This document shows positions 3,373 to 10,775 of a stretch of 64,000 nt of DNA, piece after piece (position 1 is the stretch's first letter; the number at the start of each line of letters is the position of its first letter). Under the pieces are notes generated by a model. That model searched no databases. It was not told the DNA's origin and was given only the letters and a program-made list of their open reading frames with translations. The translations under genes and the position numbers were made by a program. Source of the stretch: Sulfuricystis multivorans (GTDB lineage: Bacteria > Pseudomonadota > Gammaproteobacteria > Burkholderiales > Rhodocyclaceae); NCBI RefSeq assembly GCF_003966565.1, contig NZ_AP018718.1:1054001-1118000 (forward strand). The letters are read 5' to 3'.

Positions 3373-4752
3373 ATGCTGAAAATCTTCAATTCGCTGACCC
3401 GCTCCGTGCAAGAGTTCGTGCCCATCGAGCCTGGCAAGGTGCGTCTCTACGTGTGCGGCATGACCGTCTATGACTACTGCCATCTCGGCCACGCCCGCGT
3501 GCTGGTGGTCTTCGACATGGTGGTGCGCTGGCTCGAGGCCAGCGGCTATCGGGTCACCTATGTGCGCAACATCACCGACATCGACGACAAGATCATCAAG
3601 CGCGCCGTGGACAATGGCGAGTCGATCCGCAGCCTCACCGACCGTTTCATCGCCGCGATGCACGAGGACGCCGACGCTCTGGGTGTTGCGCGCCCGGATT
3701 TCGAGCCACGCGCCACCGAATACGTGCCGGCGATGCTGGCGCTGATCGACAAGCTGGAAAAGAATGGCTACGCCTATGTCGCCGCCAACGGCGACGTCTG
3801 CTTCGCGGTGCGCAAGTTTCCCGCCTATGGCAAGCTTTCCGGCAAATCACTCGAAGACCTGCGCGCCGGCGAGCGGGTCGATGTCATGGAAGGCAAGCAA
3901 GATCCGCTCGATTTCGTGCTCTGGAAGCACGCCAAAGCGGATGAACCGGACGAGGTGAAATGGGCTTCGCCGTGGGGGCCGGGCCGCCCGGGTTGGCACA
4001 TCGAATGCTCGGCGATGAGCTCCAAGCTGCTCGGCGAACATTTCGACATCCACGGCGGCGGCCAGGATTTGCAGTTCCCGCACCACGAGAACGAGATCGC
4101 CCAATCCGAAGGGGCGCATGGTCATGTCTTCGTCAATTACTGGATGCACAATGGCTTCGTGCGCGTCGATGACGAGAAGATGTCGAAATCACTCGGCAAC
4201 TTCTTCACCATCCGCGACGTCCTGAAGAAATATCACCCCGAAGTCGTGCGTTTCTTCATCCTGCGCGCGCACTACCGCAGCCCGCTCAATTATTCCGCTG
4301 CCCACCTCGAAGACGCGCGCGCCGCTCTGACCCGTCTCTATACCGCGCTGAAAGGCTTCATTGTTGCGCCGAGCGTCGACTGGAACGAGCCGCATGCGAT
4401 GCGTTTCAAGGCGGCGATGGACGATGACTTCGCCACGCCGGAAGCGATCGCCGTGCTGTTCGATCTCGCCAATGAGGTCAATCGCAGCAAGGATGCCGCG
4501 CTGGCGGCGCAGCTCAAAGGGCTGGGCGGGATTCTGGGCCTCTTGCAACGCGATCCAATCGAATTCCTGCAAGCCGGGCCGGCGGCGGGCGAGGGCATGA
4601 GCGCTGCGGAAATCGAAGCCAGAGTCGCCGCGCGCGCCGCCGCGAAGAAGGCGAGAAACTTCGCCGAAGCCGACCGCATCCGCGACGAATTGAAGGCCGT
4701 CGGCATCATCCTCGAAGACGGCCCGCAAGGCACCACCTGGCGCCGGGCGTGA
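3373..4752 (+). CDS. cysS: Cysteinyl-tRNA synthetase
   Basis: Class I aminoacyl-tRNA synthetase charging tRNA-Cys, 459 aa. The N-terminal signature [19 protein letters not shown] contains the HIGH-type motif (HLGH) and the zinc-binding Cys. The second zinc region is [11 protein letters not shown] with [10 protein letters not shown], and the KMSKS loop is EKMSKSLGN. The C-terminal DALR/anticodon part ends with a basic helical region ([21 protein letters not shown]). The ATG at 3373 is preferred to an upstream in-frame ATG because it gives the conserved beginning [15 protein letters not shown] element at 3340-3345 could be its -10 box. Confidence 0.97.
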
Positions 4753-4777
4753 GCGTCGACGGTGGCGGAAACGAGAG

Positions 4778-4826
4778 CGTCCCGCCGGGTGCCGAGTCAT
4801 CTCGAACACTCGGCGCTGGCGGGACG
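4778..4826. repeat. Long hairpin from two inverted copies of a dispersed 20-bp motif
   Basis: The arms CGTCCCGCC..GCCGAGT (4778-4797) and ACTCGGC..GGCGGGACG (4808-4826) pair over about 19 bp with one bulge and a 10-nt loop. The right arm contains, on the minus strand (4810-4829), the motif TGCCGTCCCGCCAGCGCCGA that recurs at 38153, 49521, 53298 and 59277. The left arm is a diverged inverted copy. There is no T-run, so it is at best a weak terminator for cysS. A paired-inverted arrangement is typical of REP/BIME-type elements. Confidence 0.65.
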
Positions 4827-4856
4827 GCACCTTACAGACTGGCCGCGAAGCGGCAC

Positions 4857-4891
4857 GTTTCATGCGGGGGCCGCGAGCTCCCGCATGAAAC
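4857..4891. repeat. Perfect 12-bp inverted repeat abutting the first CRISPR repeat
   Basis: GTTTCATGCGGG at 4857-4868 and CCCGCATGAAAC at 4880-4891 are exact inverted repeats with an 11-nt loop. The right arm ends on the base before the first CRISPR repeat. A small hairpin, GCCGC-GAA-GCGGC (4842-4854), precedes it. This is the upstream end of the array with respect to repeat transcription. Possible roles are an array-boundary structure or insulation from cysS read-through. No function is demonstrated. Confidence 0.6.
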
Positions 4892-5866
4892 GTTGTAGCT
4901 CCCTCTCTCACCCCGGATAGCTACAATTTAGGCGAAACAATCATATAACATCTTCCGAGTTGTAGCTCCCTCTCTCACCCCGGATAGCTACAATTTCGAT
5001 TTCGTTCGGCCAGACATTGGCCGGTGTTGTAGCTCCCTCTCTCACCCCGGATAGCTACAATTAATCTGCGCTGGCGTTGGATACGACCCCCCGTTGTAGC
5101 TCCCTCTCTCACCCCGGATAGCTACAATTCAGAAATCATTTCCAAAGTGGCGAAATCACGTTGTAGCTCCCTCTCTCACCCCGGATAGCTACAATTGGAG
5201 GAAGATCATGACCATACCAGACAAACGTTGTAGCTCCCTCTCTCACCCCGGATAGCTACAATTTGCTTCGTGCTGTTCGCTCGTTCGATGCTGGTTGTAG
5301 CTCCCTCTCTCACCCCGGATAGCTACAATTGAGCATCTGCGGAGTTACGCGCCATGTTTCGTTGTAGCTCCCTCTCTCACCCCGGATAGCTACAATTATG
5401 ACGCAAGTGCTCGGCCAGTGCCTGCGTGTTGTAGCTCCCTCTCTCACCCCGGATAGCTACAATTAAGAATATATATAACGCGCATGGCGCTGTAGTTGTA
5501 GCTCCCTCTCTCACCCCGGATAGCTACAATTCGGTGGTCAAGCGGGATGTTGAGCGTCTGTGTTGTAGCTCCCTCTCTCACCCCGGATAGCTACAATTTG
5601 AAGTCGATGCGCGCCAAGGTCTTCGACCGTTGTAGCTCCCTCTCTCACCCCGGATAGCTACAATTCATCAAAAAAGCAAGAGATCAGGCAGCATCGTTGT
5701 AGCTCCCTCTCTCACCCCGGATAGCTACAATTTTTGATCGTGCCAAGGTTGTAGAAGTTTGCGTTGTAGCTCCCTCTCTCACCCCGGATAGCTACAATTA
5801 TGCAATCATGATGCAATTTTGCTGCAATCGTTGTAGCTCCCTCTCTCACCCCGGATAGCTACAATT
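4892..5866 (+). CRISPR. Type II-C CRISPR array, 15 repeats, 14 spacers
   Basis: Fifteen identical repeats begin at 4892 and recur every 67 bases to 5830. The repeat starts GTTGTAGCTCCCTCTCTCAC and ends CGGATAGCTACAAT. A T always follows, so it can be read as a 36-nt repeat plus an invariant T (37) with 30-nt spacers. It closely resembles the Neisseria meningitidis type II-C repeat, which also starts GTTGTAGCTCCC and ends CTACAAT. In that system each repeat carries its own crRNA promoter, and TACAAT here is a good -10 hexamer. Orientation is deduced from tracrRNA pairing and from the terminator after the last repeat. No repeat is degenerate at either end. The last spacer (5800-5829) contains three GCAAT words at 11-nt intervals. 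Confidence 0.99.
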
Positions 5867-5879
5867 TGGCTGTATCTTG

Positions 5880-5915
5880 ATCCCCGTCCGGCCAAGGCTT
5901 GGCGGGGATTTTTCT
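5880..5915 (+). terminator. Rho-independent terminator of the CRISPR array
   Basis: ATCCCCG at 5880-5886 pairs with CGGGGAT at 5903-5909. An inner CCAAG/CTTGG arm extends the structure, and TTTTTCTTC follows. The T-run lies on the plus strand only, so it ends transcripts leaving the array rather than the convergent cas2 message. It starts 14 bases after the last repeat. Confidence 0.8.
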
Positions 5916-5929
5916 TCTCCAATCCCGGA

Positions 5930-6238
5930 TCAGAACAGCACCAGTTGCGCCGCTGAGACCTTTTTTTCCTGAAAAAGCGGCATGCCGACCAACAGGCGCA
6001 TGCCGGCATACTGCTTTTCGGTCACGGTCATCGCGCGCACCGAGCCTTCCGGAGGCAGGTTCTCGGCGAGCCGCGCCAGATGCTTTTTCTCGGCGTCGCT
6101 GCCATTGAGGATGCGGCCATAGACCGACCACTGGATCATGTCGTAGCCGTCGTTGAGCAAGAATTTGCGGAACTGCACATAGGCGCGCTTTTCGGCCTTG
6201 GTGACCATCGGCAGGTCGAAAAATACCAGCAGCCTCAT
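5930..6238 (-). CDS. cas2: CRISPR-associated endoribonuclease/integrase subunit Cas2
   Basis: Structural subunit of the Cas1-Cas2 spacer integrase, 102 aa. It starts MRLLVFFDLPMVTKAEKRAY with the ferredoxin-fold beta-strand and conserved Asp (D8), followed by YDMIQWSVYGRIL. The ATG at 6238 is chosen because it gives this canonical N-terminus; the open frame upstream is not conserved. It lies 25 bases after the cas1 stop and is the last gene of the cas9-cas1-cas2 unit, converging on the array terminator. Confidence 0.96.
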   Translation of the reverse strand: MRLLVFFDLPMVTKAEKRAYVQFRKFLLNDGYDMIQWSVYGRILNGSDAEKKHLARLAENLPPEGSVRAMTVTEKQYAGMRLLVGMPLFQEKKVSAAQLVLF

Positions 6239-6263
6239 GTATCGCCTCGTCTCTATGCCCACG

Positions 6264-7166
6264 TCAATACTCCAGCCGGTGCGCCGTAAGACCGATGAGC
6301 GCGGGCAGGTGGAGCTGGCGGCTTTCGTCTTCATAGACCCGCACCAGGCTTTCGACCGCGTATTCGATCGCCGAGAGCACCGACATCCTTCCTTGTGGCA
6401 TGCCGACATCGACATTGAGCAGCGCCACCAGCGCCTGCTTGTCCGTCGGAATCAAATCGCCCTCAGTCGAGGCCGGATGCTTGGCGACGTGTAGATCGAC
6501 GATCGGCCGGAAGGGTTCGATCAGATCGTCGGCCAGGTTGAAGGCATTCTGCTCGCTGTCATGGAACAGGCCGACGGTCGGATGCAGCCCATGCGCCACC
6601 AGTCCGCGCGCGATCGCGCCGCGTAATACCGCATAGCCGTAATCGAGCGCGGCGTTCGTCCAGCGCGCCTCGGCGCGGTTGAAATCGCTCCCGAAGAGCT
6701 GCGCGAAATAGAACGCCGCGGCTTGCGCTTCCAGATTGTCCGGGTCGCCGGAGCGCACGCGCCGCGCATAGGAGGCGAGCCGATCCATGCCTTCTTTGCC
6801 GCACAACTTGAGACAGGCGGCCTGGTTCTCGATCTTGCGGCGCACGAGAGCAGCCCAGGCCTGCTTGGCCGCGGGCTTGCCTAGCCCAAGCTGCTTTCTC
6901 ATCATGCGCGTGGTGCGCGAATGCGGCAGGAACGGCAGGAACACGCCGGCCGGCTGGTGGTTGGCGCCGGTGGCAAAAAGCCCGATGCCGTATTCGGCGC
7001 AGGCCGAGAGTACTGGATGGGTGAGCGTGATCTCGCGATGGTTCAAGACGATCACCGCGATGTCCTCGAAGGGCACGAAGGCGGTTTCCTCCTGGTCGAT
7101 GGCCAGCGAATAATGCTCCCGCCGTAGCCGCGCGGGACGCGAGATCATCACGCTACGCCAGACCAC
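6264..7166 (-). CDS. cas1: Type II CRISPR-associated integrase Cas1
   Basis: Metal-dependent integrase that inserts new spacers, 300 aa. It begins [20 protein letters not shown], like Neisseria Cas1 (MTWRSLLI...). Predicted metal ligands are E146 (NLEAQAAAFYF), H202 (GLFHDSEQN) and E217 (FNLADDLIEPFRP), the usual Glu-His-Glu/Asp trio, so it looks active. The start overlaps the end of cas9 by 14 bases, indicating translational coupling. There is no csn2 or cas4 gene nearby, which places the locus in subtype II-C. Confidence 0.97.
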   Translation of the reverse strand: MVWRSVMISRPARLRREHYSLAIDQEETAFVPFEDIAVIVLNHREITLTHPVLSACAEYGIGLFATGANHQPAGVFLPFLPHSRTTRMMRKQLGLGKPAAKQAWAALVRRKIENQAACLKLCGKEGMDRLASYARRVRSGDPDNLEAQAAAFYFAQLFGSDFNRAEARWTNAALDYGYAVLRGAIARGLVAHGLHPTVGLFHDSEQNAFNLADDLIEPFRPIVDLHVAKHPASTEGDLIPTDKQALVALLNVDVGMPQGRMSVLSAIEYAVESLVRVYEDESRQLHLPALIGLTAHRLEY

Positions 7167-10100
7167 GGCGCGCTTCCTTCGGCGCAGGGTAGACGTTGCC
7201 GAGGACGTCGACGTGGAATTTTTCGAACCCGCTGGCAGTTTTCACCCCAGTGCGGATGAATCCGTCTTTGCCGACACTGGCGTTCCGGTCGTGCGCCCAG
7301 AGACCAATATTGCCGGTTGACCGATCACAACCGGCAAAATAACCCGTCAGCACTTCTCCTTTCAGCTTGACGCGCAACAAATCACTGGGATGTGCGGAGA
7401 ATAGAAAGTCGAAATCCGCTTCGTCGATCAGCGTCCATTCCTCCTCGTCCTTGAAAGCCACGATCGCCCGGTTCGGCAATTCCCCGGTGCGCTTGAAGAT
7501 CGCGACGTGATGCACATACACAGGCACCAAATGGAACTTGCCGTCCTTTTTGCTGCGGAAGACGTCGACGCGCAGCATGGTGTCGTTCTTGGCGATGCCG
7601 CCGCGCACGGGAATGCCTGAGAGCTTGTCGATCACCATCGTCACGCTGCGCACGATCGGGCCGGTCGGCTTGCCGTCGCGGTCGGGTTTCCTCAGCGGAT
7701 TGTCGGATGGGAAGGCTTTGTCGCCCTTGCCGCCGTGGGCTTCCAGCCGTGCGCGGATCGCGGCGTAGAGTTTCTCGTTACGGTGCGGGTCGATCAGTTT
7801 GTCGAGGTCGGCCAGTTTCAGGCTGGAAAGCGGCACTCGCTGCGTGACGCTTCCTTTCGCCTTGAGTCGTTCCGGCTGACCGTAGATGGTGTCCTTGTGC
7901 GCCGCGCCGCTACCTCTGCGCTGTGGCGCGCGCGAGACGAACAGCGGGCGAACGTTGGCGAGCGCCTCGGCCGGATAGGTGCCGAAAGCCTGCAATCGCT
8001 CGCGCAAGGCTTGCTCGTCGTCGATGAACAGCCGCGCTTCGAGCTCCTGCCTGAAGTGCGGCCACGGCTCGGGGAAATGCGCAGTCAGGCGCGCGAACAT
8101 CGCCGGATCGAGAATCTCGCCGGTTTCCGGGTCGGGAAAGCCCAAGCGCAGGTTTTCGAGTTCGTGGCTGCGCGCATAGTCGGCTAGGCGTTTGACCATG
8201 CCATGACTACAGGCGGCGACTACGGCGGCGTCGAGCGCGTGGTGGCGGTCGCTGTCGCTGCGCACCTTCAGCAAGCCCCAGCGGGCGCGCAGGAAAGCGG
8301 TGAGCTGGCCATTGACGACGACGCAGCGCTTCGCTTCGGTAAGTGCCGTCCCATCAGCGCCGACTTTCGGCGTGAGTTTGAGATGCCGCTCGACGTAGTT
8401 CTTGAAGAAGCGGCAGATGTAGCGGGTGTCGTTGAGGTGGCGCTCGCGAAACTCCTCGGCGGCCGTGCTGGAAAAATCCTTGCGCAACAGGCGCTGGCGC
8501 TTGGCGAGCCGAAAGTTCTTGTTCGCTTCGACGTAAGCGACGAAGTTGCGCCAGCGTTCGCCTTGCTCGCCGCCCGTGAAGCTGGTCAGGTACTCATACG
8601 GGGTGCGGTTACCCTTGTTGCGGTTTTCTTCGCCCAGCACCAGCACCTTGTTGTTCTTGCTGTCATCGAAGCTGCGCGAGTAGGGCAGCGCATGATCCAC
8701 CTCGGCATACCCCGGATCGAAAATCACGCGCTGAAGATCCAGCGCTTGCAGAGAGTAGGCGCACTTGCCCTGCTGCTCGCGGTAGAGCTGGAATTTCTCG
8801 AACTCGCGGCTTTTGGCCGGGATGCCGAATTCGTCGGCGAAAACCGCCTTGTCCTTTTCGTTGCGCTCGCGGTATTCCTCCTGTGCCTTCTTGATTTTGT
8901 TGCGTTCATCGGAGGGGCGGGACAGATCGCGCGCCATTTCGATATGCACCTCGTGCGGCGAGCAATAGGCGCGGATCAGCGCATTCATCACCTTGCGCGC
9001 CTGGTTGAGCGCGCGCAGCACGACGGGATTCCTGGGAATATCCAGTTCCTCGTTGAGTGTGAGCCGTCCATTCTTTTCGCGCCCAAGGTAGAAAGGCGGC
9101 AGATAGATGTCTTTCCTCGTCTCGGCGGCCTGCGGCTGGCTGTGGTGATAGCCGACGACCTGGCAAGCTTCGTCGTAGCGCAGGCCCTTCTCCATCTGTG
9201 GCACGATCTTGCGCAAGGCTTTCAGCGAGAGGTTGTGGAACTTGTCGAAGCTGATTTCGGACAGCGCCTCGATCATCTTTTCGCCGCCGGGTAGATCGAG
9301 CTTGCGCAATTCCGTCTCGACTTCGGCGCCGTCCTTGAAGACCGAGAGCACGAGGGAGATTTCGTCGAGCAGCGTCGGATCGCCGGCCATCGCCTGTCCG
9401 GCCATGCTCTCCCATTCCGTTTGCAAGCCTTTGTCCTTGAGCGTCTTGCGTAGGGTTTGCCATGCCGGCAGCTTGACGAGCACCTCCTTTTCCTTCTCCT
9501 CGGCGATGCCGGCAAAGCTGAAATTCGCCAGTCCGGCCTTGGTGAGCGCCGCGCGCAGGTGTTCGTACTTGAAGTCGCCGGCGCGCTGATAGGGCAAAGG
9601 CAGAACGAGCTGCCGCTCGGTCTCGTTCAGCGCTCGCGTGCGGCCATCGACGACGATGCGCAGGTTGTTGAGGCGGGTGAGCCAGACATGGCGCTCGGCG
9701 GTGAAGCTCGCTTTCGGCGCGCGGTATTCGCCCTTGCCGTCAGGCCCTCCCGTTCTCTCGAAGGTGCATCTGCCCAGCATTTTGAGCAAATCGGCACCGG
9801 AAAGTGGCGGCTTTTGCTCCCAGAACAGGCCGCTCTTGCGGTCACCGCGGCCGAGGATCTTCTCTTCCAGTGGGGCGCCGGCATGCGGATTGCCCAGTTC
9901 GCGCTGACGGCGGAACAAAAGCGCCAGCTCGTCGGCGAGCAGTGTCCGAGAGAGGGCTTTGCTGTATTCCCCGGCCTTGTTGCGCTGGGCATCCGGAAAT
10001 TCGGCCAGCACCATCTCGGCGGCGCTGCGATAGCCTTTTTCGGCCATGCGCCGCTGGGTGTCGGAAAGTCCTTGCTTGACCCTGCCGCCTTCCTTCTTGT

Positions 10101-10524
10101 CGCCTTCGGCTTTCTTTTCCTCGGCGCGGCTGATCCAGTGAAAGCCGCGATGTTTGACGAGGTGATAGATGACGCGCGCCCACTCGATCGGTTCCAGGCG
10201 ACGGTCGAGGCCTTCGACGCGCAGCTTCCAGGGAGAAATCGACGATGGGCGGCGCACGGCTTCGATGCGATCGATCAAGCCCTCGCGCCTGAGCAGGCGG
10301 GCGAGCTTGACGAGCCGCCAGGCGCGCCGGCGCAGACGGCGGCGCATCAGCCGCGCCATGCGTCGCGCGAGATTGAGCGATTCGCCCTTGTCGGCGGTTT
10401 CCGCCTTGTCGAAACAGCGCACGCCGAGGTCGATGATGCGCTCGTCGTCGAGCACGCACCAGCCGACCGAAGCGATGCCGATGTCCAGACCGAAGGCCAA
10501 ATTTTGCGAGGTCTTGTCGCCCAT
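7153..10524 (-). CDS. cas9: Type II-C CRISPR RNA-guided endonuclease Cas9
   Basis: RNA-guided DNA endonuclease of 1123 aa, somewhat longer than Neisseria meningitidis Cas9 (1082). In order: RuvC-I ([13 protein letters not shown], catalytic D14), an Arg-rich bridge helix near residues 50-80 ([19 protein letters not shown]), the REC lobe, RuvC-II ([12 protein letters not shown]529), the HNH domain ([25 protein letters not shown]611) and RuvC-III ([16 protein letters not shown]761 and D765). The C-terminal third holds the PAM-interacting region. All four nuclease residues are intact. The ATG at 10524 is preferred to one at 10542 because AAGGGAGG lies 5 bases upstream of it. It is the first gene of the minus-strand cas operon. 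The promoter region overlaps the divergent tracrRNA gene. The PAM cannot be read from the sequence. Confidence 0.98.
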
Positions 10525-10542
10525 GCCATCCTCCCTTATCAT
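10514..10542 (+). promoter_or_regulatory. Predicted sigma-70 promoter of the tracrRNA
   Basis: TTGTCG at 10514-10519 and TATCAT at 10537-10542 are separated by 17 bp, the optimal spacing. Transcription would start near 10549-10550, exactly where the anti-repeat begins. The promoter covers the cas9 start codon (10522-10524) and its ribosome binding site on the opposite strand. Confidence 0.65.
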
Positions 10543-10549
10543 TCGCTTC

Positions 10550-10654
10550 GTTGTGGCTATCCGGGGTGAGAGCCGTTGCTACAATAAGCTGGAGTCGTAA
10601 GACTCCGAGTCGTATCCGGGCCCAGCGGGGAAACCCGTTGGGCTCTTCCATTTT
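10550..10654 (+). ncRNA. tracrRNA
   Basis: Trans-activating CRISPR RNA. The anti-repeat GTTGTGGCTATCCGGGG..GTTGCTACAAT (10550-10584) complements the CRISPR repeat. About 23 bp pair at the 3' half of the repeat (two G-U wobbles), followed by an internal loop and then 8 bp at the 5' end. Next come GAGAGCCGTTGCTACAATAAG (the central part resembles Neisseria tracrRNA), a nexus hairpin GGAGTC-GTAA-GACTCC (10591-10606), and a 12-bp terminator stem GGGCCCAGCGGG-GAAA-CCCGTTGGGCTC ending in TTCCATTTT. It is transcribed away from cas9. Processing with crRNA by host RNase III would be expected from the family. Confidence 0.93.
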
Positions 10655-10660
10655 ATGTCC

Positions 10661-10678
10661 GACAAACGCGCGTTTGTC
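10661..10678. repeat. Perfect 18-bp palindrome after the tracrRNA terminator
   Basis: GACAAACGCGCGTTTGTC is fully self-complementary. It starts 7 bases past the tracrRNA T-run and about 100 bases before accA. It has no T-run of its own. It could be an operator or a backup terminator; nothing in the sequence decides between them. Confidence 0.4.
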
Positions 10679-10775
10679 ATTGTGCGCGCCGTCATGCTCG
10701 GCTTCGGCTCGGGATATCCCACGCTTCGTTTCGGCACTTGCCGTTCGGCTTGCGCCTTCCAGTAGAATCCCCGCC

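What the first reader, a model, noticed from the sequence alone, without database searches (positions are those of the whole stretch)
4778..10654. Complete, apparently functional type II-C CRISPR-Cas9 locus with a Neisseria-like repeat
The repeat, tracrRNA core, Cas1 and Cas9 all resemble the Neisseria meningitidis system. The host looks like a different betaproteobacterium, and the Cas9 is larger (1123 aa) with intact D14, E529, H611 and D765. Fifteen repeats are identical and the period is exactly 67 at every unit, which suggests recent or continuing activity. A diverged Cas9 with a recognisable guide scaffold probably has its own PAM.
Basis: partly seen in the sequence, partly recalled or inferred. 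Interest (0 to 1): 0.65.

Follow-up and report, generated by a model that had tools for sequence, protein, structure and literature searches.

The report
Intact CRISPR-Cas9 with capped array
This is a complete, ordinary bacterial immune system of the CRISPR-Cas9 kind, and the start of its memory array is capped by a folded hairpin that many relatives share in shape but not in letters, probably so that the spare first repeat cannot make a useless guide.

Summary
Window 4834-10758 holds an intact type II-C system: 15 identical repeats, 14 spacers, cas2, cas1, a 1123-aa Cas9 with four catalytic residues in place, and a tracrRNA. The repeat is 37 nt and the spacers 30 nt. Two closest relatives have cysS and accA side by side here, so it came in as one insert of 5.9 kb.

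Two things go beyond the finding. (1) Cas9 has aspartate where Nme1Cas9 has PAM-reading H1024, which predicts C at PAM position 5. In relatives this residue is scattered over the Cas9-body tree, and its H class is grouped in the PAM-domain tree, which points to domain exchange. The PAM is unproven; flanks of near matches are mixed. (2) The array's 5' end carries a two-hairpin cap flush with repeat 1. Its long arms differ between genomes yet stay paired (355 of 364 pairs). Arrays without the cap usually have a damaged first repeat (21 of 30, against 2 of 24; kinship not corrected). The likely role is to silence the extraneous crRNA of repeat 1, a strategy described for II-C in 2025. The conserved form without a terminator tail is the new variant. 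Function is inferred.

The parts
4778..4826 (+). strong host intergenic hairpin between cysS and the insert; its 3' arm is part of one copy of a 22-nt motif found 300 times in the genome
4834..4891 (+). array cap: short hairpin 4842-4854 (GCCGC GAA GCGGC), AC linker 4855-4856, 15-bp hairpin 4857-4871 / 4877-4891 flush with repeat 1; the helix runs 2 bp into the repeat (4892-4893)
4892..5866 (+). CRISPR array: 15 identical repeats of 37 nt, 14 spacers of 30 nt; spacer 11 at 5599-5628
5880..5913 (+). terminator-like hairpin with T-run at the 3' (cas2-proximal) end of the array
5930..6244 (-). cas2 (104 aa)
   Evidence: TIGR01573, PF09827
6264..7166 (-). cas1 (300 aa), type II
   Evidence: TIGR03639, PF01867
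7153..10524 (-). cas9 (1123 aa), catalytic residues intact; D1067 at the Nme1Cas9 H1024 position
   Evidence: numbering: D is residue 1067 of the 1123-aa form
10550..10655 (+). tracrRNA: anti-repeat 10550-10585, stem 10591-10606, terminal hairpin 10618-10645; promoter-like site 10514-10542
4834..10758 (.). whole insert between cysS and accA, with CCTT at 4830-4833 and 10755-10758 on the two sides (a possible duplication, not shown)
   Evidence: sites without the insert in G017 and G003; edges read by eye

Best explanation
A working type II-C CRISPR-Cas9 system of the Neisseria kind, gained horizontally as one insert of about 5.9 kb. crRNAs are read on the + strand from the cap end towards cas2, where a terminator ends them. 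Each repeat pairs with the tracrRNA, and Cas9 cuts matching DNA, most likely with C at PAM position 5 (N4C...). New spacers are probably added at the cas2-proximal (3') end. Repeat 1 has no spacer before it, so transcription coming in from cysS would load Cas9 with a useless 'extraneous' crRNA whose guide is whatever lies upstream. The cap puts that guide into a perfect hairpin that runs a few pairs into repeat 1. Shown: anatomy, intact frames, site without the insert in two relatives, covarying cap, cap against damaged first repeat (kinship not corrected). Inferred: expression, PAM, direction of acquisition here, function of the cap.
For: Gene families and catalytic residues. tracrRNA conserved in 12 rows that I chose for alignment. 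Sites without the insert. Cap: 24 of 54 distinct scored array flanks have a flush stem of score 10 or more; in 24 of the 26 positive rows (two of them repeat a genome) 0 of 300 shuffles reached the observed score. In 26 caps 355 of 364 pairs are standard, with 3 to 6 kinds of standard pair at each of 14 positions. Among three same-genus caps, 10 of 15 long-stem pairs changed on both sides. A model from these three found six matches above 38 bits in 297 genomes, six of six flush with a II-C repeat, three of them outside the training set; ten weaker ones (31 bits or less) have no repeat-like stretch in the locus. First repeat damaged or truncated in 2 of 24 capped and 21 of 30 uncapped arrays, Fisher p 5e-6. 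The helix extends 2-5 pairs, wobble allowed, into the repeat in 25 of 26. Hairpins that trap the ecrRNA guide are described for II-C and tested in C. jejuni (PMC12080349, sections 18-20 read). PAM: D1067; D goes with C at position 5 in tested orthologs (PMC9433092, section 5 read).
Against: No expression data. The cap statistics treat related arrays as independent (L010 and L011 are near copies); the test on the tree has only 3 independent pairs and shows nothing. Nine uncapped arrays have an intact first repeat (one, L173, has an imperfect hairpin by eye), so silencing is not always needed. No sigma-70 promoter was found in 4700-6000, so the source of array transcripts is unknown. Protospacers: 0 of 8 spacers scanned in IMG/VR match; best phage and plasmid E-values for own spacers are 0.3 and 0.1. 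Spacer 11 has four places at 26 of 30, with C at position 5 in three and G in one; four homologs at 24 of 30 have G or T. L031, also of the D class, has a near match (26 of 30) on a Shinella plasmid with G at position 5.
Confidence: 0.75

Rival explanations
1. The cap is a transcription terminator that shields the array from cysS read-through, not a guide trap.
For: Terminators upstream of II-C arrays are described and one was tested (PMC12080349, passages of section 17 read). A further host hairpin lies at 4778-4826.
Against: The hairpin is followed directly by GTTGTAGC, so there is no T-run on the + strand; the simple terminator scan reports nothing at the cap on either strand.
Confidence: 0.12
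2. The cap is a DNA-level boundary: the end of the mobile cassette, or a barrier to spacer insertion at the old end, so the structure acts as DNA.
For: The insert begins at or within a few bases of the cap (4834). Caps persist beside a single or altered repeat in G016, G002 and G064. The short stem often has the GCGAAGC form, a very stable DNA hairpin (recalled).
Against: No transposase or integrase was recognised in the insert, and there is little room for one; no matching structure was sought at the other end. It does not explain why damaged first repeats go with its absence or the pairing into the repeat.
Confidence: 0.13
3. The locus is an idle relic that only looks intact.
For: No full spacer match in what was searched; the TG of the extended -10 that I recall from the Neisseria repeat is missing here (AGCTACAAT).
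Against: All three frames open, catalytic residues intact, 15 of 15 repeats identical, tracrRNA and terminators kept. Most environmental spacers have no known match (recalled).
Confidence: 0.1

Closest known systems
Neisseria meningitidis type II-C CRISPR-Cas9 (Nme1Cas9)
   Same: cas9-cas1-cas2 order, repeat and tracrRNA type and 30-nt spacers (Nme anatomy recalled); among the best solved relatives
   Different: Cas9 1123 against 1082 aa; 37-nt repeat; D instead of H at position 1024; capped 5' array end, where five unnamed loci outside the host family with Neisseria-like repeats (L174, L175, L187, L188, L191) show a half repeat
II-C ecrRNA-guide hairpins (Feussner et al. 2025, PMC12080349)
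   Same: helix upstream of the first repeat that covers the ecrRNA guide; listed beside repeat mutation as an answer to the ecrRNA
   Different: there enriched 8-bp helices, and the one tested may double as a terminator; here a flush stem of 14 to 23 pairs, an added short hairpin, strong covariation, no T-run. The paper's supplements were not readable here, so its data set may contain some of these arrays
Leader-repeat hairpin of CRISPR-Cas13 (PMC13187072, passages read) and II-A
   Same: leader RNA pairs with the first repeat to block the extraneous crRNA
   Different: here only 2-5 pairs reach the repeat in 25 of 26 caps; most of the helix lies in the guide
PAM diversity of close Nme1Cas9 orthologs (PMC9433092)
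   Same: D/H/N at position 1024 separates PAM classes
   Different: here in environmental betaproteobacterial Cas9s, with body and PAM-domain trees in conflict for the H class

Membership tests
CRISPR-Cas type II-C | Cas9 with RuvC and HNH parts | tested here: met
   TIGR01865, PF13395, PF18541; D14, E529, H611, D765; PF22702 (Cas9 RuvC) is below its cut-off
CRISPR-Cas type II-C | only cas9, cas1, cas2; no csn2 or cas4 | tested here: met
   between cysS and accA the three cas genes, the array and the tracrRNA leave no room for another gene of that size; other overlapping ORFs were not searched against families
CRISPR-Cas type II-C | tracrRNA with anti-repeat and terminator | tested here: met
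CRISPR-Cas type II-C | 36-37 nt repeats, about 30-nt spacers | tested here: met
CRISPR-Cas type II-C | Cas9 inside II-C in a tree with other subtypes | not tested
   the tree holds only close relatives
CRISPR-Cas type II-C | promoter in each repeat | tested here: inconclusive
   no sigma-70 match in 4700-6000; TACAAT present, TG before it absent
CRISPR-Cas type II-C | spacer acquisition at the last repeat | tested here: inconclusive
   damaged first repeats at the cas-distal end in relatives; no identical spacers between loci in the pool of 544 to order events
CRISPR-Cas type II-C | RNA-guided DNA interference | not testable with these tools
   needs experiment
II-C ecrRNA-guide hairpin | helix over the ~25 nt upstream of the first repeat | tested here: met
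II-C ecrRNA-guide hairpin | not a Rho-independent terminator | tested here: met
   no T-run after the stem; simple scan negative at the cap; RNIE, used in the paper, was not available
II-C ecrRNA-guide hairpin | reduces ecrRNA activity | not testable with these tools
   needs cell-free or in vivo assay

The most novel reading that the evidence does not exclude
The two-hairpin cap is a new structured RNA element of betaproteobacterial II-C arrays, kept by selection for shape alone, whose job is to disarm the extraneous crRNA. Arrays either keep the cap or break repeat 1, two exchangeable answers to one problem. In the same Cas9 clade the PAM-reading domain is traded as a module.
Probability: 0.45. 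Interest if true: 0.65.

Novelty: new variant of a known kind. Interest (0 to 1): 0.47.

Why it matters
The 2025 II-C study could not separate guide trapping from transcription termination, because its tested hairpin could do both (PMC12080349, section 20 read). These caps have no terminator tail, so they make that question directly testable. Damaged first repeats where the cap is missing would, if the link survives correction for kinship, be independent evidence that the extraneous crRNA costs fitness. Mixed PAM-reading domains in otherwise close Cas9s would show how PAM choice changes quickly in environmental bacteria, and give a predicted N4C-type Cas9 to test.

Tried and rejected
Self-targeting: own array against own genome gives the array, the tracrRNA and seven matches at E 0.68 or worse. 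Spacer 14 resembles a motif that occurs twice in the two IncW-type plasmid stretches read (25 of 28, E 0.1), but the two PAM-proximal bases differ; kept as a lead only. Spacer 8 matches in transposase, efflux and other genes were rejected as chance. Arrays of L040, L031, L008, L030, L009 and L028 gave no phage match at E limits of 0.1 to 0.5; L040 against 297 family genomes gave what I read as repeat and anti-repeat matches. An integron attC reading of the cap was dropped (GTTGTAG does not fit the recalled GTTRRRY core). MAFFT alignments A1, A2 and A4 did not keep the stems in register and were not used. A link between the cap and loss of the TG in the repeat was dropped: by eye the TG is missing in nearly all relatives, capped or not. 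The tree-based test of cap against first-repeat damage had too few pairs; its trait values were entered by hand, with L003 given the state of the G003 array and L035 taken as capped. L170 (score 9, 0 of 300 shuffles) stayed on the uncapped side.

Full report
Observation. Fifteen identical repeats step by exactly 67 bases from 4892 to 5866. The base after the 36-nt repeat is T in every unit, so the copied unit is 37 nt and the spacers are 30 nt. In the relatives the spacer is nearly always 30 nt, while the repeat is 37 nt in some arrays (last base constant, or nearly so, within an array: C, T or G) and 36 nt in others. cas2, cas1 and cas9 are open on the minus strand and belong to the expected families. 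Cas9 has 1123 aa with D14, E529, H611 and D765 in place. A tracrRNA on the plus strand begins at about 10550; its anti-repeat and terminal hairpin are conserved in the 12 rows aligned.

Host and origin. One search returned 38 named loci that encode relatives, mostly metagenome bins labelled betaproteobacterial or only Proteobacteria (exceptions by label: L010, L034 and L039). The host shares its family with Candidatus Desulfobacillus denitrificans. Cas9 is found in 4 of 19 genomes of the genus, own genome and one partial copy included. In G017 (one contig) and G003, the two genomes with the highest cysS and accA identity, cysS and accA are 46 and 50 bases apart, stop codon included; in the window they are 6.0 kb apart. 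By eye the edges read GGCACCTT / ACAG on the left and GCGCCTT / CCAGTAG on the right, which makes the insert 4834-10758. G003 carries its own II-C locus elsewhere. Cas9 of G003 (L003) and that of Tepidimonas aquatica (L027) form the sister group of this Cas9. This is best read as horizontal gain at a site next to a highly repeated host motif.

PAM. The residue at the Nme1Cas9 H1024 position is D1067. In tested close orthologs D goes with C, and H or N with A or G, at PAM position 5 (PMC9433092, section 5 read). In the window plus 31 relatives the residue is D in 16, H in 8, N in 6, other in 2 (of the 38 loci L026, L036, L038 were left out as partial and L022, L029, L032, L039 as disrupted or cut). 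On the tree of residues 1-860 the H class needs 8 changes, at least 6 forced by well-supported branches, and 500 of 500 label shuffles do as well; the D class needs 13, and 477 of 500 do as well. On the tree of residues 921-1123 the H class needs 2 changes (0 of 500 shuffles do as well) and the D class 7 (4 of 500). The N class is not grouped on either tree, and 14 of 29 inner branches of the second tree are unresolved; that tree also contains the residue itself. L024 and L037 have 38-40% identity to the window in residues 921-1123 against 69-71% in the body. Exchange of the domain explains this best; repeated point change is the alternative. One outside check: L005 has the H..TGN pattern of Nme1Cas9, and its spacer 12 matches a CobT gene of Rhizobium phages at 28 of 30 over exactly the spacer (4 records, E 0.06); the two flanks read are CACCGATT and CACCGACT, the first of which is N4GATT. 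For the window, spacer 11 has four places at 26 of 30: a phage-type gene in G481 and in G651 (phrog_6367 for both, PF20039 tested for one), C at position 5 in both; another gene in G656, G at position 5; and a gene of Streptomyces phage IceWarrior, C at position 5. In PF20039 genes from 17 of 297 family genomes the best sites are 24 of 30, with G or T at position 5 in four of four. L031 spacer 1 (D class) matches a Shinella plasmid at 26 of 30 with G at position 5. L037 spacer 15 matches Pseudomonas phage BL5 at 29 of 30, flank CGACC; L037 has neither D, H nor N there. These are leads with mixed outcome, not a derived PAM.

The array cap. Immediately before repeat 1 lies a short hairpin, two linker bases and a 15-bp hairpin whose right arm ends at the base before the repeat; the fold of 4838-4930 has z -6.6. 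In 24 of the 26 positive rows none of 300 dinucleotide shuffles reached the observed flush stem; in L020 one did and in L171 two did. For the pair count I used 26 caps, adding L035 (short flank) and L173 (below threshold): 355 of 364 pairs over the first 14 positions are standard, with 3 to 6 kinds of standard pair per position. By eye the short stem keeps the form C-GAA-G or C-GNNA-G. The two bases before the long stem are AC in 24 of 26, and the helix continues 2-5 pairs, wobble allowed, into the repeat in 25 of 26. In the two capped arrays with a changed first repeat (L020, L021) the count is 4 with their own or with the usual repeat, but by eye the four are all Watson-Crick only with their own letters. 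A structural scan of all sequence held (2.42 Mb over both strands, overlapping loci included) found such a cap only flush with a repeat: 56 rows, several per cap, and none elsewhere; the loci were chosen around arrays, so this speaks for a low background rather than for genome-wide absence. A covariance model from the three same-genus caps, without any repeat letters, gave 16 of 297 genomes with a match at E 0.01 or better: six above 38 bits, all flush with a II-C repeat or the start of one (three outside the training set: G016, G002, G064), and ten at 31 bits or less, none with a repeat-like stretch in the locus. Only 18 candidates per genome were scored, and the model missed capped family genomes of other arm types, G028 for one. 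In the window the cap scores 79.9 bits, its opposite strand 26.2, and three other places at most 11.8. Rfam has no hit at the cap up to E 10.

What the cap does. In type II the crRNA guide lies 5' of its repeat, so repeat 1 can only form an extraneous crRNA whose guide is the flank. PMC12080349 (abstract, sections 18-20 and passages read) lists three II-C answers: upstream terminator, hairpin over the guide, damaged first repeat. Here the hairpin covers exactly that guide and has no T-run, and the damaged-repeat answer is common where the cap is missing: first repeat damaged or truncated in 21 of 30 uncapped against 2 of 24 capped arrays (damage means at least two differences from the array consensus, or a half repeat one unit upstream). 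The p value of 5e-6 ignores kinship; the tree-based test had three pairs and no power. I commit to guide trapping (0.6-0.7 for this step). Function as a terminator or as a DNA boundary is less likely but open.

Array direction. A terminator-like hairpin with a T-run follows the last repeat in the window (5880-5913), and by eye in about 26 of the 30 loci listed (for the window). Damaged first repeats lie at the cas-distal end. Both fit transcription towards cas2 and acquisition at the last repeat, as reported for II-C (PMC12638026, passages read). No identical spacers between loci were found to prove it.

Literature limits. Searches on II-C spacer acquisition, Nme1Cas9 orthologs and PAMs, Rhodocyclaceae Cas9, extraneous crRNA, II-C hairpins before the first repeat, and PAM-domain recombination (listings seen, and passages or sections of five papers) showed no description of this cap or of domain exchange in this clade. 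Only open-licence PubMed Central papers were searched, and no supplements could be read.

Noticed in passing
window 4809-4830 and 9 other places (987, 8343, 12874, 19335, 38152, 43890, 49520, 53297, 59276): A 22-nt motif GTCGGCGCTGGCGGGACGGCAC occurs 300 times (up to 3 mismatches) in the 2.8 Mb genome against 0 for the reversed control. Ten places with up to 4 mismatches in the window, about half preceded by GAAA, one of them inside cas9. A host repeat family of unknown function; one copy lies at the CRISPR insertion site.
   Followed up: partly
arrays of L003-L040 and window 4892-5866: Repeat unit is 36 nt in some and 37 nt in other close relatives while the spacer stays about 30 nt: the copied repeat length differs by one base between relatives.
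   Followed up: partly
L022, L029, L032; L253 (G016), L254 (G002), L255 (G064): Disrupted cas9 genes in relatives, and loci where the cap stands beside an altered or seemingly single repeat.
   Followed up: no
window 5800-5829 (spacer 14): Spacer made of ATGCAA-type repeats, resembling a motif near the ardC gene on IncW-type plasmids such as R388 (25 of 28); may come from a related conjugative plasmid.
   Followed up: partly
L011 14338-16851: In Candidatus Desulfobacillus denitrificans cas2 matches only in part and the array starts about 2.5 kb further on, which suggests an insertion between cas2 and the array.
   Followed up: no
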